Source: Methanoculleus sp. UBA374 (GTDB lineage: Archaea; Halobacteriota; Methanomicrobia; Methanomicrobiales; Methanoculleaceae). Taken from it: a stretch of 64,000 nt of DNA. How positions within the stretch are numbered: position 1 is the stretch's first letter; each line of letters starts with the position of its first letter. The notes under the pieces are model-generated. The model searched no databases, had not been told where the DNA came from, and saw only the letters and a list, made by a program, of their open reading frames with translations. The stretch is taken from the NCBI GenBank assembly GCA_002508705.1, contig DAYL01000019.1, positions 53,028 through 117,027 on the forward strand, given 5' to 3'. A program made the translations under genes and the position numbers. Of this stretch, positions 22,334-38,967 are shown piece by piece.

Positions 22334-25180
22334 CTAGTTAATCTTGAACTGTTTGAGTGCCGCTTCCATCTGTTCGGCCATACTTGCCAGTTCGTGAGAT
22401 GCGCTCCCGACCTCCTGCGTTGAGGCGCTGACCTCTTCTGCAAGCGCCGCCATGTCTTCGGTGCGGTCCAGGCTCTCCTTGGTCATGTGGTTGGACTCGT
22501 CCATCTTCTGCATGACATCGTTGGTGGAGCCGGCCTGGTCTTCGGTGGCCTTCGAGATCTCGGTGATGCCGTGGGCGACTACCTCCACACTGTTGACGAT
22601 CCGGTTTAAGCCCACAATGACCTTGTTGACGCTCTCGATGCCTGCCTGGATCTCCTGATGAGACGCCTGCATCGAACCGGTGGTCTTCTCGGTGCTGGCC
22701 TGGATCGTCCGGATCAGGTCCTCGATATCCTGGCTCGCACGCTTGGACTCCCCGGCAAGGTTCCGGATCTCGCCTGCGACCACGGCGAATCCACGACCGT
22801 GCTCTCCGGCGCGGGCGGCCTCGATTGCGGCGTTCAACGCAAGGAGGTTTGTCTGGTTGGCAATGTCGGCGATCAACTTGACGATATTGTTGATCTCCCG
22901 CATCTGGTTGTTGAGGGTGCTGATCTCGTCTACGGTCTGCTTGGAGATCCCCTCAACAAGCTGCATCTTCTTCGCCGCGACTTCGCCGAGCGAGGCCGCT
23001 TCTTTCCCTTCTTCCGACGCCTTTGCGGCCTGGTCCATGACCTCCTGCGACGTGCTTGCGATCTCCTCGATAGACGCCGAGAGGTCGTTGATATCCTTCC
23101 CGATCTCTTCGATCTTGTCGAGTTGCCGGCGTGCATCTTCCGACGACTGCTGTGTCGAGGTGGCAACCTGCTCGGTGGCCCGGATGATCTCGTCGGTGCT
23201 CTTGCTGACCTCTTTTGTCGTCAGGTCCACCTGGTGCCCTGTTTTTGCCACTTCTCCGAGGAGTGTGCGGATGGCGGTCAGCGAAGCGTTGTAATCGTTC
23301 TTGACGACCTGGAGCGGGTCGTCGTTTCCTGCATTCACAAACGCCGTCAGGTTGCCCTGTGCCATGGCGGCGAGTGCTTCCCCAAGCTCTTCGGCGCTTT
23401 CGGCGAGTCTCTCTTTCTCCTGCTTTGCAGTCTCCATCAGGTTTTTAACCTGCTCTTCTCTCTCCCGCTGCTCCGTGATATCGTTGTAGACGGTGAGAAC
23501 CGAGTCCAGATTGCCGGTACGGTTGAGGAGCGGGATGTTGTGCCGATCAAGGAGGTAGGTGCCGGCCGGGAACTCTATTGCTGCCTCTCCGTGGCTTGCC
23601 TGCCGTGTCCGTATAGTGTCGAGAATCCCCTGTCCCGACTGGGAACGGTATTTGAAGTCCTGTGTGGTGAGCCTCGACGCCTGGTCTTCGGTGTACCCCG
23701 AGAGTTTCAGGAACGCCTTGTTTGCCATCTTCAGGGTCGCATCAGGGTTCCAGAGGAGGATCGGCATCGGGTTCTCCTGAACCATGACGTCCGTCTGTTC
23801 CTGCAGTTCCTTGATCTCTTCCATCTCTTCCTGCTGTTTGGTCCAGTCGTTCCAGACGTAGAAGGCCATCTCGATCTCGCCTTTCTTGTCGAGGATGGGG
23901 ATGGCGTTCAGGGTGAGGTATTTCTTCACGCCGTCGGGCCACTTGACCATGACGTCGCTTCTGGCGAGTTTTTTCGTCTCGTAGCAGGTGTAGAAGTCCA
24001 CGCCGTTGAGGATGGTGATGTCGTAGTCGTAGAGTTTCTTTGCAAGGGTCTCTTCCCGGGTCCCCCGCCACATCCGGACGTACTCGTCGTTAATGTCGAT
24101 CCGGCTCTTGTCCGAGCGGAGCGTCGCGATTGCAAGCGGGTTCTGCTTGATCATCGCATCCACCCGGTATTCGGTCTTCTTGACTTCTTCCTCCTTCTCA
24201 TGGAGGTCGGTCCAGTCGTTCCAGACGTAGAAGGCCATCTCGATCTCGCCCTTCTCGTCGAGGATAGGGATGGCGTTCAGGGTGAGGTATTTCTTCACGC
24301 CGTCGGGCCACTTGACCATGACATCGCTTCGTGCCGGTTTCTTCGTCTCGTAGCAGGCGTAGAAGTGCACGTCGTTGAGGATGGTGATGTCGTAGTCGTA
24401 GAGTTTCTTTGCAAGGGTCTCTTCCCGGGTCCCCCGCCACATCCGGACGTACTCGTCGTTGATATCGATCCGGCTCTTGTCCGAGCGGAGCGTCGCGATT
24501 GCAAGCGGGTTCTGCTTGATCATCGTATCGACGCGGCGCCGTATCCGCCGGCTTTCCTCCTCCCCCTCCCGCTGCCGGGTGAGATCGTTGTAGATGATGA
24601 GGATGCTCTCGATCTCGTTCTTCTCGTCGAGAAGCGGAATGCCATACTGCTCAAGTGTATGGGTCCCCGAGGGTAATTCGACGACGACTTCCCCGTACAC
24701 GCGTTTTCTCTCCCGGATGGCCTGCCGGAGGCCGGAACCATTCAGTGAGAGTATCTTGAAGTCCGAGAGTCTCCTTGAGAGCACCTGCCCCTCCGGGATC
24801 CCGCTCATCTCGGCATAAGCAGCGTTTGCCAGGGTAATTTTGAACTGCGGGTCGACAACCAGGATGGGCATAGGGTTTTCCTGGACGATCGTCTCGGACC
24901 GCTGCCGGGCGGCTCCTGCCGCCTCCAGTCTGTTCTGGAGGTCCCGCTTCTCCTCCTGCGTCTTCTCAAGCAGCGCATTAATCGAAACTGCGAGCGGCCG
25001 AAACTCCTCCGGAACGCCGGCAAGGTCGATCTTCGCCAAGTCGTCGCCGTCGATCCCTGCGTGGAGCGCACCTTCGATGGCCTCCGGCAGTACCACCGGC
25101 CCCTGTTCTATCTTCTGTCCTGCAGTACCCGGCACAATCGGCCCGGTGAATAGTGCTTTCCTTCCAGGTTTATCGGTCAT
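22334..25180 (-). CDS. Cytoplasmic methyl-accepting chemotaxis protein with four PAS domains
   Basis: A 948-residue chemoreceptor without any transmembrane helix, hence cytosolic. Order: a coiled-coil start (about 60-100); PAS1 ([16 protein letters not shown]); PAS2 from about 218 and PAS3 from about 341, nearly identical ([20 protein letters not shown] in both); PAS4 from about 465 ([16 protein letters not shown]); a HAMP-like linker ([14 protein letters not shown]); then the signalling domain with hairpin tip [23 protein letters not shown] domains probably bind haem, flavin or small ligands, but no cofactor residue is certain. It is 3 nt from a parA-like gene, suggesting dedicated positioning. 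Confidence 0.95.
23841..24156. repeat. Direct repeat copy A (PAS3 of the chemoreceptor)
   Basis: This 316-nt block matches the block at 24210-24525 with about 14 mismatches by hand count (roughly 96% identity). The offset is exactly 369 nt (123 codons), so the frame is kept. Silent positions are as conserved as coding ones, which points to recent duplication or gene conversion. Confidence 0.9.
24210..24525. repeat. Direct repeat copy B (PAS2 of the chemoreceptor)
   Basis: Partner of the copy at 23841-24156. Differences cluster around 24325-24375, where the protein reads KPARSD...VHFYACYET rather than KLARSD...VDFYTCYET, that is, in the likely ligand pocket rim. Confidence 0.9.
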
Positions 25181-31279: not shown

Positions 31280-31975
31280 CTACCTGCCCGGGATGCCCAC
31301 GTGGCCCGGGAGTTCGGAAAACGCTGCAAGGACGATATCCACCTCGATCTCCGCCGGCCGGCTCTGCCGCCAGTCGCCGTAGGCGGCAAACGCCGTCGTC
31401 ATGCCTAGGTGCCTTCCCGGGGCGATGTCGCGGACCAGGCTGTCGCCGACCATTATCGCCTCCGCCGGGGCCGCATTGAGCCGCCGGAGGGCATAAATAA
31501 GGGAGTCCGGTTCCGGTTTTCGTTTTCCCGATATATCCGGGGTCACCACGGTCTCGAAGTAATCGATGAGCCCGGTTTTATTGAGCCGCCGACGCGCCTG
31601 GAACGTCTCCGCGTCGGTGACGACCGCGAGCCCGATCCCGGCGTCCGCGAGGCGCCGGAGCGTCTCTTCGACGCCCGGATACGCCTCGACCATATCGAGT
31701 TTCACGTCCTCATAGGTGCGGCAGCAGACGTCGAACGTCCCGGGCTCGTACACCCCGAGGTCTCTGAGATAGTCGCGGATGTTTCTATGGTCCTCGAACC
31801 CGTACGTCCCCCGGAGAAACTGCGAAAAGAGCGTTTCAGGGTCCCCGGTCCCGAGGTAGTCGACCACGCACCGGCATGCCTCCCGCTTTGCTCCGACGAA
31901 GTCAAAGAGCGTGTTGTCCATGTCGCAGAGGACCGCCGTTACTTTCTTATGCCGAGTGCCGCAAGTCGCCTGCAT
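31280..31975 (-). CDS. HAD-superfamily hydrolase
   Basis: A 231-residue phosphatase of the haloacid dehalogenase type. Motif I is CDMDNTLFD with the Asp nucleophile, motif II VVTDAETF, motif III the Lys in GKRKPEPDSLIYAL, and motif IV MVGDSLVRDI. The helical cap lies between residues 25 and 95. The substrate is a small phosphomonoester of unknown type. The start must lie upstream of motif I, so it overlaps the PIN gene by 37 nt; it is therefore translated from the same mRNA as the CARF-PIN pair. Confidence 0.88.
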   Translation of the reverse strand: MQATCGTRHKKVTAVLCDMDNTLFDFVGAKREACRCVVDYLGTGDPETLFSQFLRGTYGFEDHRNIRDYLRDLGVYEPGTFDVCCRTYEDVKLDMVEAYPGVEETLRRLADAGIGLAVVTDAETFQARRRLNKTGLIDYFETVVTPDISGKRKPEPDSLIYALRRLNAAPAEAIMVGDSLVRDIAPGRHLGMTTAFAAYGDWRQSRPAEIEVDIVLAAFSELPGHVGIPGR

Positions 31976-32946
31976 ATCTCCAGTTCCCTTGTGAATTCAT
32001 GGTATGTCCCGTCATCCCGAAAGCGCACCTTCAGTTCGTCGAGGTCGTTGCCCTTCCCGCCGAACTCCCCGAAGACGGTGAAACCGTTGCAGCCTATAAA
32101 CCCGAAGACAGCGGCCAGGTTGAAGATCAGCCGCCGGAATTCCTCTGCCGTGCAGGTCGCCCCCTCCAGTCTATATGGGCGGTCGAAGTAGAAGTACTCG
32201 AGCCCCTCGGCCATGCAGAGGTCGGCCATGTAGATATCGGCGGTGAGGAGAACCGGGAGGGCATACCGTTCCTCCTCGAATTTCCGAAGCGCCCGAACGA
32301 TGTTACGGTCGTTCTCTTCCGTCAGGTGCGTGTGGGGGCCGGGCGCTGCGATCTCCATCGCCCGGTCGCGGATGGTCCGGTACTCCTTCAGCGCGAGGTA
32401 GGCCGCTTTCCGGGACCGCTTCGTCCGCTTGTTCTCGAGTTCCCCGATGAACTCCCGCGAGCCCGGTGCGCACGCCGCCATCTCCGCGATCGTCTTCGCC
32501 GGGTACTTGCGGTTGATGGCGTAGGTGATCTCGTCCCGGACGGTATCGACGATCAGGTAGGAGGAGTGGTTGATCGCCGGGTTGTTCGACGCAAAACCGT
32601 GGTAGAAAAGGTTCGTATCCAGGCCGAAGAAGACATCCTTCTTGAGCTGCCCATAGGATACGCGCATCGATTCAAAGGCGGCCTGGTTTGTGTAACGCGC
32701 GATCCCGCTTGCAAACATGCATTCCTGAAGGTCGGCGTAGGATGGAAGTTCGCCGGCGATAGGCCCGTACCCGGAGAGCCAGTTCTGGAAGGTCTCGCGC
32801 GTTGCGGGTAGTTCGAGGGCGTAGCCGGTTCCATCGGGGTGTGCGACCAGAATATCCCCCTCATAGAGCGGATACGAAACACGGACTTCGTCGAGACTGT
32901 TGAGGAGGACCTGCACCTCGTCCTCCCGAATGACCGCGTCGTGCAT
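31939..32946 (-). CDS. PIN-domain ribonuclease (335 residues) coupled to a CARF-like protein
   Basis: The start ATG at 32946 shares its first base with the stop codon of the CARF-like gene (TGATG). The N-terminal 105 residues are of unknown fold. The PIN core follows: VFFGLDTNLFY (D110), VRDEITYAI (E139), EENDRNIV (D213) and VLLTADIYMADLCMAEG (D237). That is the complete acidic quartet that binds Mg2+/Mn2+ in active PIN RNases, and ADLCMAEGLEYFYFDRP is the classic end of the core. A C-terminal part from about 265 is extra. A single-strand RNA nuclease gated by its partner is the inference; no antitoxin-like gene is present. Confidence 0.75.
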   Translation of the reverse strand: MHDAVIREDEVQVLLNSLDEVRVSYPLYEGDILVAHPDGTGYALELPATRETFQNWLSGYGPIAGELPSYADLQECMFASGIARYTNQAAFESMRVSYGQLKKDVFFGLDTNLFYHGFASNNPAINHSSYLIVDTVRDEITYAINRKYPAKTIAEMAACAPGSREFIGELENKRTKRSRKAAYLALKEYRTIRDRAMEIAAPGPHTHLTEENDRNIVRALRKFEEERYALPVLLTADIYMADLCMAEGLEYFYFDRPYRLEGATCTAEEFRRLIFNLAAVFGFIGCNGFTVFGEFGGKGNDLDELKVRFRDDGTYHEFTRELEICRRLAALGIRK

Positions 32947-33458
32947 CACGGCACCCCTCTCGCATCCTCCATGATATCCCGGATCTTCTGGACCTGGCGC
33001 GGGATCATCATATACGGCTTTGCGACGTCGTCGGTGCTCTTCATGGAGAGGTAGTAGATGTGCTGGATATCGAGCCCCGCAAGTGAGACCGCGATGAGCG
33101 CCCCGGCGACCGTAACCTTCCTTCCCGAGGTGATATCGATCGCCACGCGGAGCCCCTGCCGGATGAATTCTGCGGCAAGCGAGCGGATTGTCTGTCCGGC
33201 CCTTATAAAGTCCAATTCCGGCAGAATTTCCACATCTATTGCCGGGGTGAACCCGTATCCCTCTGAAACTACCCGGATTGCTTCGGCTGCGGTCGATGCA
33301 TCTCCCGCGTAGGGCTCTTCTGTGACGATTGAGACCCGTTCGAGGCGCAACCCCTTCTCCCGCAGGACTGCATGATAAGCGTTGACGAGCGCCCACGTTG
33401 AGCGTCCCAGAAGTGTTATGTAGGCATCGCCGGAAGCGGGTGTCACGGGAGAGATCAC
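32946..33458 (-). CDS. Stand-alone CARF-like (Csm6/Csx1-type sensor fold) protein
   Basis: A 170-residue Rossmann-like protein with the two CARF ligand-loop motifs. The first-strand loop is ITLLGRSTWALVNAY (residues 14-28), and RVAIDITSGRKVTVAGALI (104-122) corresponds to the DxTGGxK motif of CRISPR-associated Rossmann fold sensors. Strand 2 is RVSIVTEE, and the last strand is IQHIYYLS. CARF domains usually bind cyclic oligoadenylate or related nucleotides and switch on a fused nuclease. Here the effector is on a separate, translationally coupled gene. The GTG start lies 27 bp from a TATA box, so the transcript is probably leaderless. Confidence 0.65.
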   Translation of the reverse strand: MISPVTPASGDAYITLLGRSTWALVNAYHAVLREKGLRLERVSIVTEEPYAGDASTAAEAIRVVSEGYGFTPAIDVEILPELDFIRAGQTIRSLAAEFIRQGLRVAIDITSGRKVTVAGALIAVSLAGLDIQHIYYLSMKSTDDVAKPYMMIPRQVQKIRDIMEDARGVP

Positions 33459-33480
33459 TGCTCAAGACTCATCCTGCTGC

Positions 33481-33765: not shown

Positions 33766-34371
33766 ATGGAGACGAGAAAAGTACAATTACGGACACCGGC
33801 TGAGATCTGGGGACTGGCGGACCCGGATCAACAGAGGAAAGCGCGTCAGGATGCTATCGACGACGGGGATCTGATCGAGATCACCAGGATGGGGAGGGAT
33901 GCGGGCATCACCTACCCGATTGCAGTCTCGGCACGGGCCGCAGAGCGTATGGTTCCATTCCCGAATATCCCGCAGGAGACCGTCACGGAGAACTTATGGG
34001 ATACTCTTCATGCATTCAGGGCCAAGGCCTTTGCCACAACAAAAGAAGAGTTTGAGTTCCAGGTCAGCCTCTACCAGAACGGGCTCGTTCCCAACCTCAC
34101 CTTCAAGGCCGCGGTCTCGCCGGGAGACGACGGCGAACCGGTCATCACCATCATGCTGCCGGACGAGGACTGGGAGACGATCGGATGCGGCTGCCGTCAT
34201 AGCGCGGGCGACAGGATGCTCACCGTCGACGACGTCGCCTCGACCCTTAACTTCACTCCCGGCCGGATCCGGGAGTTCATCCGGGAGGAGCGGATCCCGG
34301 CGGTCAAGTGTGGGGGGTCCTGGCGGATCAAGCGTTCAGAACTTGAACGGATCATGAACGAAGGTTTCTGA
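33766..34371 (+). CDS. DUF6573-like protein fused to an excisionase-type helix-turn-helix
   Basis: A 201-residue two-domain protein. Residues 20-130 resemble DUF6573 (DAIDDGDLIEITRMGRDAGITYPIAV... TFKAAVSPGDDGEPVITIMLP), a family often found on plasmids and in phages. Residues 148-201 are an excisionase/MerR-type HTH (LTVDDVASTLNFTPGRIREFI... CGGSWRIKRSELERIM). A CGC motif (IGCGCRH) lies between them. I infer a DNA-binding regulator of mobile-element origin. A TATA-like GGTATAAGA lies about 30 bp upstream, at 33726-33734. It stands alone. Confidence 0.7.
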   Translation: METRKVQLRTPAEIWGLADPDQQRKARQDAIDDGDLIEITRMGRDAGITYPIAVSARAAERMVPFPNIPQETVTENLWDTLHAFRAKAFATTKEEFEFQVSLYQNGLVPNLTFKAAVSPGDDGEPVITIMLPDEDWETIGCGCRHSAGDRMLTVDDVASTLNFTPGRIREFIREERIPAVKCGGSWRIKRSELERIMNEGF

Positions 34372-35046
34372 CCGGTTCATATGGGACGGCGGAAAAACAA
34401 TAGTTTTTCTGAACGTTTCTGTCGTTCGCCAGCGGTTCTGCCAGTTGCCATACCGCCTGTCCGGATAACCGTCAGGCGTTTTTCCGGGCATGGATCTGCC
34501 GCACTGTCCGGTCCTGTATGATATCCGTTCCGGTGCCTCGCATCTCATCTGGCCTGGTCCCGATGTCGTTTCCATCTGTTTGTCAGGGATATGCGCTACC
34601 TGGGCGTCGGGGCAGGAGCCCCGGGAAGAGGGTGACCCCCCCATATGCTCTCCTGAAATATGATCTATTTAAATTTTTTCTTATTGATAAGACACATAAA
34701 ACAAACATTTTTAATTTTTAGACGTATAGTTCTCTTAATGTGCGTCGAGGGCCCACGAGTATTCCCGGACTGTTCTTTCGCCTATTCCATGGCGGGTATC
34801 GGCGATTTTACGGCAAAACCGTTAGATTGCGAAGGTGGGGAGGTGCCCCATCCCGATGACCGTGCCAGTTTCGGGATATCGTGTGGCCTCTGGCGTGCGA
34901 TCTTCTGGGGCACCTGTATTATTCTCCTTTTTCTTGGAGCGGAGGTACTGGGGGTGTCTTCGGTGCCGGCGATCGATGCAGCATGCCCCATTGTATGCTT
35001 TCCCGGGCTCTTCGGGCCGAATGGATCTTCGTTCCTCAGGTACCGG
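34372..35046. other. Long region between the HTH gene and the HEAT protein
   Basis: It holds a hairpin terminator at 34392-34409 (GAAAAAC/GTTTTTC around AATA), a hairpin CGGGGC-AGGA-GCCCCG at 34608-34623, and an AT-rich promoter-like block at 34665-34720 (TATTTAAATTTTTT). The HEAT frame stays open upstream to 34660, with an ATG at 34738 and a possible hydrophobic segment (AIFWGTCIILLFLGAEVLG), so a longer N-terminus is not excluded. Confidence 0.5.
34392..34409 (+). terminator. Hairpin terminator of the DUF6573-HTH gene
   Basis: Perfect 7-bp stem GAAAAAC / GTTTTTC with loop AATA, 20 nt after the stop codon, ending in five T residues. Confidence 0.5.
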
Positions 35047-38000
35047 ATGAAGAGGTCCGCCGAAGGGGGCGGCAAGGAGGACGATTCGGGGGGTCACGAC
35101 CCTGACCCTGGCGCCTCCCTGCCGGATTCCAGTGCGCCGGACGAACCCGCCCGTGCTGACGGCGAAGAAAATATTCTCAATAGATTTGAAAAGATCCCCG
35201 AGGCCCTTCGGCAGTTTGACAGCCTCATCTACGGGGAGAAACCGGGTGCGGACCTTTCTTCCGGCAAACCGATCGAAGCGGAGAGGCTCCCTGCCCTTCC
35301 TCCACGGCACAGCCCGGATGACGGCGCGTCCGACGACCCGGACAATTTTCCGGAGCGTTCCATGGATGATCCGCTCCCGGTGAACTCCAAACCCTTCAAA
35401 CCGCCCGACTCCGACGATAAGGGCGATGAACCGTCTCTTCCGGGCCTCGTCCGTGATGCCTGCCTGCCGGAGGATGAGTCTGGTCCTGACGAACCTGCGG
35501 TAGTTTCTGTCGTGGAAGAGCGTCCCATTGCGTCACTCGTCGACGACCTCGGCAGTGACGATGCCGGTATCCGTGAACGCGCCGCACATGCCCTCGCAGA
35601 GCGCGGAATCGACGCCGTGGCTCCTCTGATCCGGGCTCTTGCTCTTGTGGACGACGGGAGGCGGTGGTGTGTCGCCGAAGCCCTTGCCCTGATCGGCGAA
35701 GATGCAATTCCGGCATTGATTGCTGCACTTGGAGATCCCGGGACGCAGGCAGGAGCGGCTGCAACGCTTGTGCGTGTCGGCGAACCTGCCGTGCCGTCGC
35801 TCATCGCAGTGCTTGCCGGCACCGACGACGAAGTGCAGTTCGGTGCCCTCTATGCCCTCCATGAAATCGGCGAGGCGGCTGTCCCTGCCCTTGTCGATGC
35901 TCTCGATGCGCCCGACGGGGGCATCCGGAGGGCTGCCGCTTCTGTTCTTCGGGAACTCGGGTGGAAGGCGCCTGATGAAGCCGGAACAATCCGGTATCTT
36001 ATTGCCACCGAGGCGTGGCTCGATGTGGCGGAACACGGTGAAGCCGTGATCGATCCTCTCATCCGCATCCTGCGGTCTCCGGATCGGGAGATCTGGTGGA
36101 ATGCCGCCCGGACCCTCGGGGAGGTCGGCGGTGCAGCGGTCGGTCCTCTGGTCGATCTCCTGCGCGAAGCAGGTGATGAGGTGCGGCCGCTGGCGGCGAT
36201 GGCACTCGCAGAGATCGGGTCTTCCGCGGTCGATCCGCTCATCCGGTTGCTTTCCGACTCCTCCCTCCGGAATACGGCGGCGGCAACCCTGATAAAGATC
36301 GGGGAGCCGGCGATAGAGGCATGTATCCAGGCCCTGGACGGCGCGGATGCGGACGTGCAGGCGGCGCTCCAAAACGTCCTCTGTGCGTTCGGCGACGCGG
36401 CGGTCCCATCTCTGATCCAGGCACTGACCTCCGATCGGTCCCGTGCTCCTGCCGCTACGATCCTGGATCGGATGGGCTGGGAGCCCTGGAGCGACACCGA
36501 ACGGGCATGGTACCTGATCGCCCGGGAGGAGTGGGTGGAACTCGCCTTGATGGGTGCGCCGGCGGTCGAGCCCCTGATCCGGACGCTCAACGGCGGCGAT
36601 GACCGCATACGCGGCGAAGCTGCGGCGACGCTCGGCGAGATCGGCGATCCTGCGGCTGTCGGGCCGCTCGTGGATGCCCTTGCCGACGAGGCCGTTGCCC
36701 CGGCAGTGGCGGATGCGCTCGTTGCCATCGGGAAGCCAGCCGTACCTCCGACTCTTGCGCTGCTTGAAGAGAGGACCGGTGCCGCCCTCTCGAATGCCGT
36801 CGAGGTGCTGGGCAGACTCGGGGCGGACGAAGCGGTTCCGGCACTCGTTGAACTCGTCAGGAGCGGCGGCGACCGCCTTCACCGGAAAGCCGTCGACGCC
36901 CTGGTCGGCATCGGTGCGCCTGCGATAGGCCCCCTTATCTCCCTCCTCGGCGAGGACGGCGACGGGCACACGGGAGCAGTGGCGGCGCTCACCGGAATCG
37001 GCGACGCCTCATCCGGGTCGCTTGCCGCCGCGCTTCGCGATGAGAACGTCCTGACCCGCATGGGGGCCGCCACCGTCCTCGGGAGGCTTGGCTGGGCTCC
37101 TGCAGGAGAGGAGGAGCAGGTTGTCTACCTGATTGCGCTGCAGCGGTGGTCCGACACTCCGGCCCTCGGGGCTGCGGCCGTCGACCCCCTGGTTGCGCGG
37201 CTCGGCGATCCGGACCCCGGCGTGCAGATGGGTGCGGCGGAAGCGCTTGCCCGGATCGGGGCGCCTGCGGTACCTCCTCTGGTCCGCCTGCTCGGCGATG
37301 AGGCCGGTTCCGCGCTCGCAGGCGATACGCTGGTACGGATCGGCGAAGCAGCCGTAGATCCGCTGATCCGTGCTCTCGGCGACGATGCGCTCCGGCAGGC
37401 TGCCGCCGGGGTGCTGGTCCGGGTCGGGCGCCCCGCTGCCGGTGCGCTCGTTCCAACCCTCGGGCTTTCCGACACGGGCGAAATTACGGCAGAGATCCTG
37501 GCGGCAATGGGCGAACCTTGTGTCGATGTCCTGGTCGGTGCGCTCGGGAGCGACGACGCCCGGATCCGACAACGGGCGGGGGATGTGCTCGTCGGCCTCG
37601 GCGATATCGCTATCGGCCGGCTTATCGGAGCATTGGGGTATCCGGACGGTGCCCTCAGGATCGGGGTGATCGATACGCTCACCCGGATCGGCAGACCGTC
37701 GACGGCCGGCCTTATGGAAGCACTTTCGGACGAGCGCTACCGTGTGCGGCTGGGCGCGGCGGAGGTCCTTGGTAGAGCCGGCTGGGTTCCGGAGACCGGG
37801 GAGGAGACCGTCCTCTACCTGATCGCAAAGGAGCAGTGGGCCTCTGTTGCAGAGACCGGGCCCGGTGCCGTCGAACTGCTGATCCGGACGCTCAACGATC
37901 CCGACAGCGCAATCCAGATGGGTGCGGCCCGGGCGCTCGGCATGATCGGGGCTCCCGCGGTCGCGCGACTGACCGACGAACTCCGTACGGAGCAGGACGG

Positions 38001-38967
38001 CAGGCAGAGGAAGGCGGTCGAGGCACTCAAGTTGATCGGGGCGCCCGCGGTCGTGCCGCTCATCGACGCCCTTCAAGACCGTGACTGGCGCATCCGCCTG
38101 GGAGCGGCGCGTGCGCTTGTCGCTATCGGGGACCCCGCGGTCGATCCGCTGGTCCGGGCTCTTCGAGAGGGCTCCCCGGCGGTCCAGATGGGAGCTGCGG
38201 CGACGCTCGGTAAGATCGGAAGCCCGACGTCCATCAAGCCGCTTACCGATGCGCTCCTGCATGACGACTGGCGCGTGGGGCGCGTTGCGGTGCGGGCGCT
38301 CGGCATGCTGGGCGAGGCGGCAGTCGAGCCGCTTCTGTCCGTCCTCCGGGAGGGGAACGATACGGCCTGGAGGGGTGCGGTTACGGCTCTTGTGCTGATC
38401 GGCGATGCGGCGGTGCGGCTGCTCCCCGGTGCGCTCACGGACGGGCATTTCCGTGTCCGTGCCGGGGCCGCGGATGCGCTCGACCGTCTGGGCTGGTCCC
38501 CGGAGCCGGGGGAGGAGACGGTTCGTTACCTGATCGCGAAGGAGCAGTGGAGCGATCTCGCCCGGGTGGGCGAAGCGGCGGTTGAGCCGCTTGTCGCGGT
38601 GCTCAACGACCGCGACGACAGCATCCGGCGGCGGGCGGCCATGGCCCTCGGTGAATTGCGCGACCCCCGGTCGGTCCCGGCGCTCATGACCCTCCTCCAC
38701 GACGACTACTACAGCAACCGGCGAGAGGCTGCGGCGGCGCTCGTTGCGATCGGAGCCCCTGCCATGGCTTCCGTCGTCTCCGCTCTCGGCGACGGGGACG
38801 GCGATGTCAGGAAGCGTGCGGCGGATGTGCTGGCCGAGATCGGGGATGCACGGGCGGTCGAGGCTCTCAGGAATATCTTCAACGATGAGGACTGGTATGT
38901 CAGGAAGGCTGCCGAAGACGCGGTGGAGCGGATCCGGGAGCGGACCGGCGGTGCATCGGGCGAGTAG
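35047..38967 (+). CDS. Giant HEAT/PBS-lyase repeat protein
   Basis: At least 1,306 residues. The first 140 are acidic and disordered. From about 35490 the protein is an unbroken solenoid of some 35 HEAT-like helical pairs (AVPALVDAL, IGEAAVPSLI and variants). Five times a longer Trp-containing unit interrupts: LGWKAPDEAGTIRYLIATEAW near 35950, then near 36470, 37085, 37778 and 38488, so the superhelix is built of long supermodules. Such proteins act as protein-binding scaffolds. The start at 35047 (MKRSAEGG) has a weak AGGT upstream; upstream ATGs at 34738 and 34789 are possible. No enzyme domain is visible. Confidence 0.88.
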   Translation: MKRSAEGGGKEDDSGGHDPDPGASLPDSSAPDEPARADGEENILNRFEKIPEALRQFDSLIYGEKPGADLSSGKPIEAERLPALPPRHSPDDGASDDPDNFPERSMDDPLPVNSKPFKPPDSDDKGDEPSLPGLVRDACLPEDESGPDEPAVVSVVEERPIASLVDDLGSDDAGIRERAAHALAERGIDAVAPLIRALALVDDGRRWCVAEALALIGEDAIPALIAALGDPGTQAGAAATLVRVGEPAVPSLIAVLAGTDDEVQFGALYALHEIGEAAVPALVDALDAPDGGIRRAAASVLRELGWKAPDEAGTIRYLIATEAWLDVAEHGEAVIDPLIRILRSPDREIWWNAARTLGEVGGAAVGPLVDLLREAGDEVRPLAAMALAEIGSSAVDPLIRLLSDSSLRNTAAATLIKIGEPAIEACIQALDGADADVQAALQNVLCAFGDAAVPSLIQALTSDRSRAPAATILDRMGWEPWSDTERAWYLIAREEWVELALMGAPAVEPLIRTLNGGDDRIRGEAAATLGEIGDPAAVGPLVDALADEAVAPAVADALVAIGKPAVPPTLALLEERTGAALSNAVEVLGRLGADEAVPALVELVRSGGDRLHRKAVDALVGIGAPAIGPLISLLGEDGDGHTGAVAALTGIGDASSGSLAAALRDENVLTRMGAATVLGRLGWAPAGEEEQVVYLIALQRWSDTPALGAAAVDPLVARLGDPDPGVQMGAAEALARIGAPAVPPLVRLLGDEAGSALAGDTLVRIGEAAVDPLIRALGDDALRQAAAGVLVRVGRPAAGALVPTLGLSDTGEITAEILAAMGEPCVDVLVGALGSDDARIRQRAGDVLVGLGDIAIGRLIGALGYPDGALRIGVIDTLTRIGRPSTAGLMEALSDERYRVRLGAAEVLGRAGWVPETGEETVLYLIAKEQWASVAETGPGAVELLIRTLNDPDSAIQMGAARALGMIGAPAVARLTDELRTEQDGRQRKAVEALKLIGAPAVVPLIDALQDRDWRIRLGAARALVAIGDPAVDPLVRALREGSPAVQMGAAATLGKIGSPTSIKPLTDALLHDDWRVGRVAVRALGMLGEAAVEPLLSVLREGNDTAWRGAVTALVLIGDAAVRLLPGALTDGHFRVRAGAADALDRLGWSPEPGEETVRYLIAKEQWSDLARVGEAAVEPLVAVLNDRDDSIRRRAAMALGELRDPRSVPALMTLLHDDYYSNRREAAAALVAIGAPAMASVVSALGDGDGDVRKRAADVLAEIGDARAVEALRNIFNDEDWYVRKAAEDAVERIRERTGGASGE

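What the first reader, a model, noticed from the sequence alone, without database searches (positions are those of the whole stretch)
31280..33458. CARF-like sensor translationally coupled to a PIN nuclease and a HAD phosphatase
Seen: a 170-residue protein with CARF-type loops (LLGRSTWALVNAY at 16-28; IDITSGRK at 107-114), a TGATG join to a 335-residue protein with a full PIN quartet (D110, E139, D213, D237), then a HAD phosphatase gene overlapping by 37 nt. Known: CARF domains in CRISPR type III bind cyclic oligoadenylates and activate fused HEPN, PIN or other nucleases. Inferred: a split signal-gated RNase with a possible ring-opening or 2',3'-phosphate-clearing HAD partner. No CRISPR array or cas gene is in this window, so the signal may come from elsewhere or be another nucleotide.
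Basis: partly seen in the sequence, partly recalled or inferred. Interest (0 to 1): 0.85.

Follow-up and report, generated by a model that had tools for sequence, protein, structure and literature searches.

The report
Split CARF–PIN RNase with HAD phosphatase
In methane-making archaea, a three-gene unit pairs a sensor domain best known from CRISPR immunity with a probable RNA-cutting enzyme and a phosphatase, and most sampled genomes that carry it have no detectable CRISPR enzyme to make the usual activating signal, so it probably answers to another one.

Summary
The finding is real. 32946-33458(-) encodes a CARF protein: PADLOC CARF_m1, E 9e-61; invariant DITxGRK; CARF folds head the structure hits. 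31939-32946(-) encodes a PIN protein whose D110/E139/D213/D237 are invariant in 33 relatives. Together they match both halves of the solved cA4-bound CARF-PIN protein SiRe_0806: a split CARF-PIN effector. The HAD gene overlaps PIN in 53 of 58 carrier genomes and stays while neighbourhoods change.

What stands out is the missing signal source. Of 179 Methanomicrobiales genomes, 58 carry CARF+PIN; 5 of 58 have Cas10, against 13 of 121 non-carriers. A Csx1/Csm6 control follows Cas10: 12 of 18 against 1 of 62 (6 and 0 counting strong hits only). CARF and PIN motifs persist in Cas10-free carriers (43 and 44 of 44).

The HAD is near-core (165 of 179) and mostly present without CARF-PIN, so a dedicated signal-clearing role is not supported.

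Verdict: probably a ligand-gated RNase of the type III ancillary kind, working without Cas10 in most sampled hosts; ligand unknown. New variant of a known kind.

The parts
32946..33458 (-). CARF sensor protein, 170 aa, GTG start (CARF_m1 family)
   Evidence: PADLOC PDLC01971 E 9e-61 over residues 11-166; 28-sequence alignment; AF2 model pLDDT 82.7; Foldseek/VIA hits are CARF proteins
33381..33413 (-). CARF loop 1, LLGRSTWALVN (residues 16-26); S20 among the residues at 90% or more
33117..33137 (-). CARF ligand-loop motif DITSGRK (residues 108-114); D108, I109, T110, G112, R113, K114 invariant in 28 sequences
   Evidence: D[IVL]TxGRK kept in 43 of 44 loci from genomes without Cas10; aligns with DITGGRK of ring nuclease Sso2081
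32944..32948 (-). TGATG stop/start junction CARF-PIN
   Evidence: sequence; by tblastn match start, overlap of 1-5 nt in 39 of the 64 loci with both genes
31939..32946 (-). PIN nuclease protein, 335 aa: N-terminal domain (about 1-103) and PIN domain (about 104-264)
32617..32619 (-). PIN acidic residue D110
   Evidence: invariant in 33 sequences and in 44 of 44 Cas10-free loci
32530..32532 (-). PIN acidic residue E139
32308..32310 (-). PIN acidic residue D213
32236..32238 (-). PIN acidic residue D237
31280..31975 (-). HAD class IA phosphatase, 231 aa, overlaps PIN by 37 nt
   Evidence: PF13419 E 1.7e-27; TIGR02253 108.8 bits, below its cut-off of 169.75; D18, D20, T120, K153, D178 conserved in 55 of 55
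31939..31975 (-). PIN/HAD reading-frame overlap
   Evidence: tblastn match start at -37 in 48 of the 60 loci that have a HAD match

Best explanation
A split, ligand-gated RNase. The CARF protein is the sensor and, with the N-terminal domain of the PIN protein, forms a complex equivalent to one CARF-PIN chain of the SiRe_0806 type (doubled as a dimer). A small oligonucleotide bound in the CARF dimer pocket switches on PIN cleavage of RNA and slows or stops the cell. In most sampled host genomes the ligand is not made by Cas10, because none is detected, so the sensor has been uncoupled from CRISPR and answers to another oligoadenylate-like nucleotide or to RNA ends. The co-translated HAD is a small-molecule or nucleotide phosphatase with its own core role. 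Shown: folds, motifs, gene order, overlap, Cas10 not detected. Inferred: complex formation, gating, RNA as substrate, ligand identity, HAD role.
Against: No biochemistry. The genomes' completeness is not told and many are fragmentary, so some Cas10 may be missed; of 8 carriers whose locus lies on a contig of about genome size, 6 lack it and 2 have it. In G033 a CRISPR array starts about 5 kb beyond the HAD and Cas10 lies about 16 kb from CARF; in G037 an array lies about 17 kb and Cas10 about 25 kb away. Cas10 is present in 8 of 17 more distant carriers, and L118 is a family member inside a type III locus. No alternative synthase was identified: SMODS hits at E<1e-9 in only 4 of 179 genomes, mCpol hits only inside Cas10 genes. 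The CARF model is poor (pLDDT about 47) at 141-170.
Confidence: 0.6

Rival explanations
1. It is an ordinary type III ancillary effector acting in trans: the ligand is cA4 from a type III system present elsewhere in the genome, recently lost, or gained transiently.
For: Sequence relatives lie within type III loci (L118, L127). The closest solved structure has cA4 bound (SiRe_0806). 5 of 58 Methanomicrobiales carriers and 8 of 17 more distant carriers have Cas10, and in G033 and G037 it lies within about 25 kb. K114 aligns with the conserved Lys of Sso2081.
Against: 53 of 58 carriers lack both Cas10 and RAMPs at E<=1e-5. No excess of Cas10 in carriers, while Csx1/Csm6 shows one. Motifs are unchanged in Cas10-free carriers and neighbours are shared across Methanoculleus-type loci, unlike a recent loss.
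Confidence: 0.25
2. The CARF senses broken RNA (for example tRNA fragments with particular ends), as the divergent CARF of RtcR does, and the unit is an RNA-damage or RNA-turnover response.
For: [quoted passage not shown] Most sampled carriers lack Cas10.
Against: The pocket motif resembles a cA4-cleaving CARF, and none of the six neighbours scanned is an RNA-repair gene.
Confidence: 0.2
3. A toxin-antitoxin pair: PIN toxin held in check by direct binding of the upstream protein, with no small ligand.
For: Two-gene overlap, upstream small protein, PIN domain structurally akin to VapC among others.
Against: The upstream protein is a CARF with an invariant ligand motif, not a VapB/AbrB-type antitoxin. 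Three relatives also carry a separate MazE-type/PIN pair between the two genes (L108, L110, L115).
Confidence: 0.1
4. The HAD is functionally unrelated: CARF-PIN merely shares an operon with a conserved core gene.
For: HAD in 165 of 179 genomes and in 108 of 121 lacking CARF-PIN. Trio and solo HADs intermix with 3 label changes forced by well-supported branches. Some solo HADs have an acyltransferase gene downstream that by eye resembles the one beside the trio in the window.
Against: Outside Methanoculleus-type loci only these three of the window genes tested recur, in 34 loci (HAD in 30 of 34), and overlap is kept at 39-55% HAD identity.
Confidence: 0.45

Closest known systems
SiRe_0806 of Sulfolobus islandicus (PDB 9jxw, 9jxx; 'PIN domain-containing protein', cA4 complex)
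   Same: CARF followed by a further domain and PIN; both halves match structurally
   Different: One chain; ours are two proteins, at 16-19% identity in the aligned parts, with a HAD gene attached. No paper naming it was found in the library.
PADLOC CARF_m1 models PDLC01971/01972 (CARF) and PDLC01973 (CARF_PIN)
   Same: Our CARF matches PDLC01971 over nearly its full length; our PIN matches the PIN part of PDLC01973
   Different: The model entries shown name the proteins only and say nothing of a HAD link or of Cas10. That they derive from the 2020 CARF classification (Makarova et al., gkaa635) is recalled; that paper is not held.
Split CARF + PIN inside type III loci (L127, L118)
   Same: Separate CARF and PIN genes, abutting or overlapping
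   Different: They lie near type III cas genes and a CRISPR array, and no HAD was found beside L118's pair; the L127 proteins are only distant relatives (26-28% identity)
Chp, CARF-HAD phosphatase effector (PMC12715507; outline and passages read)
   Same: CARF and HAD phosphatase linked
   Different: Chp is one membrane protein (HAD-TM-CARF) found in type III loci; here the HAD is a separate, near-core gene
RtcR
   Same: CARF used outside CRISPR
   Different: RtcR is a transcription activator; its CARF binds cyclic-phosphate tRNA fragments (PMC7790460, abstract)

Membership tests
CARF superfamily (CARF_m1) | Profile match | tested here: met
   PDLC01971 E 9e-61; but Pfam Csa3_N only 18.7 bits, under its cut-off of 27
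CARF superfamily (CARF_m1) | Rossmann-like fold with conserved ligand loops | tested here: met
CARF superfamily (CARF_m1) | Binds a cyclic oligoadenylate as a dimer | not testable with these tools
   needs protein
PIN nuclease | PIN fold with acidic quartet | tested here: met
   but PF13638 only 13.8 bits, under its cut-off of 21.9
PIN nuclease | RNA cleavage | not testable with these tools
   needs assay
SiRe_0806-type CARF-PIN effector | Same domain order and fold over both halves | tested here: met
SiRe_0806-type CARF-PIN effector | Single chain | tested here: not met
   two ORFs, TGATG join
Type III CRISPR ancillary effector | CRISPR array in the window | tested here: not met
   no array in the direct-repeat search
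Type III CRISPR ancillary effector | Co-occurrence with Cas10 across relatives of the same order | tested here: not met
   5 of 58 carriers against 13 of 121 non-carriers; control effector 12 of 18 against 1 of 62
Type III CRISPR ancillary effector | Cas10 in the window's own genome | not tested
   no genome held
CARF ring nuclease | Catalytic Ser/Lys and cOA cleavage | tested here: inconclusive
   S20 nearly invariant and K114 invariant; K114 aligns with the DITGGRK Lys of Sso2081; activity untested
HAD class IA phosphatase | Catalytic motif residues | tested here: met
   D18, D20, T120, K153, D178 in 55 of 55; PF13419
Chp CARF-HAD effector | HAD, transmembrane helices and CARF in one chain | tested here: not met
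   separate ORFs; HAD-CARF chains were not searched for elsewhere
VapBC toxin-antitoxin | Antitoxin of VapB/AbrB type upstream of PIN | tested here: not met
   upstream protein is CARF

The most novel reading that the evidence does not exclude
A CARF-gated RNase lineage that has left CRISPR: across Methanomicrobiales it is kept under purifying selection with an intact ligand pocket and active site in genomes with no detectable Cas10, which implies an undescribed archaeal oligonucleotide second messenger (or RNA-end signal) and its synthase.
Probability: 0.45. Interest if true: 0.85.

Novelty: new variant of a known kind. Interest (0 to 1): 0.62.

Why it matters
[quoted passage not shown] of 145 CARF-bearing genomes only 9 lacked both cas1 and cas10 (PMC4012209, section read). 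Here 53 of 58 carriers of a CARF+PIN pair lack Cas10. The comparison is not like for like: a Cas1-family match is nearly universal in this order (176 of 179), so by the 2014 criterion almost all these carriers would not count as CRISPR-free; and the same paper notes that each CARF family has members not linked to CRISPR-Cas (passage). Still, if the pocket binds an oligoadenylate, these archaea need another synthase; if it binds RNA ends, CARF sensing has a life outside CRISPR. A specific two-protein binding and cleavage test would settle it.

Tried and rejected
HAD as dedicated ring-opening partner: not adopted, because HAD is near-core (165 of 179) and occurs without CARF-PIN. That HAD chemistry does not open rings is recalled, not tested.

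Alternative cyclases: mCpol (PF18182) hit 6 of 179 genomes, each time at a Cas10 place. SMODS (PF18144) hit 105 of 179 at E<=1e-3, but 14 exceed the cut-off, only 4 at E<1e-9, and of these 4 only G146 is a carrier. I take the weak ones, mostly in frames of about 460-640 aa, for CCA-adding-type enzymes; this is inference.

cas1 as CRISPR marker: 176 of 179 genomes match, so it does not discriminate.

Viral carriage: none confirmed in viral contigs for the PIN profile (80 pattern matches, 0 relatives). Sequence-only search of solved structures: single proteins gave only E>0.3; with the CARF profile, weak hits to Sso2081 (0.012) and SiRe_0806 (0.057) ranked below two TAL-effector hits (0.0014, 0.0017) that I read as artefacts; the PIN profile gave only MJ1533 at E 0.14, so the PIN-SiRe_0806 link rests on fold, not sequence.

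Paper searches: SiRe_0806 0 papers; CARF/PIN domain/cA4/ribonuclease/Sulfolobus islandicus 0; CARF/PIN domain/cyclic oligoadenylate/Methanomicrobi 0; 'CARF-PIN' only scarf pins and the like; CARF + Methanoculleus 1, on olive mill wastes. That no printed account of the trio was seen rests on these and (listings) only; most subscription papers, and the 2020 CARF classification, are not held. PMC9704534 and PMC11229360: passages only.

Cautions. The PIN/HAD offset of -37 is a tblastn match start, not an annotated start; the nearly invariant PIN C325 (TGY codon) gives an NTG at that place in any case. The HAD tree has long branches and an unsure root. Fisher tests ignore kinship. The 179 genomes are an even draw from a larger group, completeness not told. 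PF22335 also rings in the E. coli control genome, so it may over-call; the RAMP marker, which does not ring there, gives the same 18. Of the 12 control hits in Cas10 genomes, 6 are strong (E<1e-40) and 6 weak (E 2e-6 to 3e-10), as is the one outside. Some loci are short contigs, so absence of a neighbour there says little.

Full report
OBSERVATION. The three minus-strand ORFs are as described. The CARF ORF starts at GTG 33458 and ends at TGA 32946-32948; PIN starts at ATG 32946; HAD (31280-31975) overlaps PIN by 37 nt. A longer TTG-start ORF in the PIN frame (31939-33465, 508 aa) only reflects an open frame across CARF: the first 54 PIN homologues listed (64-100% identity) are all 335 aa.

GENE ORDER. 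Of the 27 loci from the named-genome scan, all 27 have PIN after CARF, 24 have HAD directly after PIN, 2 end inside PIN (L022, L025), and L027 has HAD 6.5 kb away. Over the 66 loci examined, 60 have a HAD match, 48 of them at offset -37; of the 6 without, 2 are contig ends and 4 have DNA beyond PIN (L109, L117, L118, L121). In the 179-genome sample PIN and HAD overlap in 53 of 58 by coordinates. G033 and G133 (HAD cut by the contig end) add two; G154 and G163 end inside PIN; G002 is the L027 case. In 34 loci (4-19 kb) outside the Methanoculleus-type set, the only window genes (ORFs of 80 aa or more, 18-48 kb) recurring in 3 or more are CARF (32), PIN (34) and HAD (30), apart from overlapping shadow frames. 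Among 28 Methanoculleus-type loci the neighbourhood is also shared: the divergent DUF6573-HTH gene in 24, the acyltransferase in 20. Distances of the three proteins correlate (Pearson 0.95-0.97, Spearman 0.70-0.82, 53 loci; not corrected for kinship).

CRISPR. In a sample of 179 Methanomicrobiales genomes (completeness not told), CARF_m1 occurs in 58, PIN in the same 58, Cas10 palm in 18, RAMPs in the same 18. The overlap is 5: G009, G033, G037, G071 and G146 (5 of 58 against 13 of 121; Fisher p 0.79). As a control I searched Csx1/Csm6 (PDLC01031) in 80 of the 179 (all 18 with Cas10, all 53 carriers without, 9 of 108 others): 12 of 18 with Cas10 (6 strong, 6 weak), 1 of 62 without (weak), 0 of 53 in Cas10-free carriers. 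For 44 Cas10-free carrier loci examined, of 53 such genomes, 43 keep D[IVL]TxGRK (not L073) and 44 keep all six PIN residues checked. Against this: in G033 a CRISPR array starts about 5 kb beyond the HAD and Cas10 is about 16 kb from CARF; in G037 the array is about 17 kb and Cas10 about 25 kb away. Of 17 more distant carriers outside this sample 8 have Cas10 (20 genomes searched, including 3 with only a weak relative, 1 of 3 with Cas10). L118 has CARF-PIN without HAD beside a 45-copy CRISPR array, with Cas10 and Cas7 genes 5 kb upstream; L127 has a distant split CARF+PIN directly after type III genes with an array 4 kb on. The family thus has type III-linked members, while most sampled HAD-linked members in this order lie in genomes without detectable Cas10.

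HAD. It has class IA matches and motif residues. HAD orthologues at E<=1e-20 are in 165 of 179 genomes: 57 of 58 carriers and 108 of 121 others. A tree of 95 HADs (55 trio, 40 solo chosen from many; 5 trio fragments dropped) needs 6 label changes, 3 forced by starred branches. One 'solo' row, L132, is from a genome with a second, contig-broken CARF-PIN and may be a trio member. Six carriers show two HAD matches (G010, G033, G036, G092, G147, G171). So the HAD has a role of its own; its link with CARF-PIN looks old and stable, but a dedicated function is not shown.

MECHANISM. Most likely a CARF dimer with two PIN proteins, activated by a bound oligonucleotide. Sequence and fold support this; assembly, ligand and substrate are inferred. 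[quoted passage not shown] The 2025 classification lists PIN RNases among cOA effectors (PMC12669027, section read). Against that background a mostly Cas10-free CARF-PIN lineage is unexpected. RtcR shows that a CARF can read tRNA fragments instead (PMC7790460, abstract).

VERDICT. Observation confirmed; interpretation right on CARF, PIN and a possibly non-local signal, weak on HAD. New variant of a known kind; interest 0.62.

Noticed in passing
L108:9406-10021, L110:7759-8449, L115:2972-3587: A small antitoxin-like gene plus a small PIN gene is lodged between the CARF and PIN genes in three relatives; Pfam confirmed MazE_antitoxin in L108 and PIN in L110, the others by likeness.
   Followed up: partly
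L109:7668-8312, L110:9415-10068, L116:6291-6940: A protein of about 215 aa follows PIN (before HAD in L110 and L116; two overlapping frames in L116); no Pfam match for the L109 and L110 copies.
   Followed up: partly
L169:4486-9918: A 1810-aa ORF on the opposite strand lies between PIN and HAD in the L027/G002 genome, the clear break of the trio.
   Followed up: no
window 33766-34371: Divergent DUF6573 + HTH_17 protein next to CARF, present in 24 of 28 Methanoculleus-type loci; possibly a regulator.
   Followed up: partly
window 34660-38967: 1435-aa protein of HEAT repeats, found in 18 of 28 Methanoculleus-type loci.
   Followed up: no
window 23810-24109 and 24179-24478: Direct repeat of 300 nt, 92% identical.
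   Followed up: no
179 Methanomicrobiales genomes: A Cas1-family match in 176 of 179 genomes, which suggests a near-core stand-alone Cas1 relative (inference).
   Followed up: no
L020:744-1015 and L052: A gap of about 240 nt separates CARF and PIN in L020; L052 shows the same match spacing.
   Followed up: no
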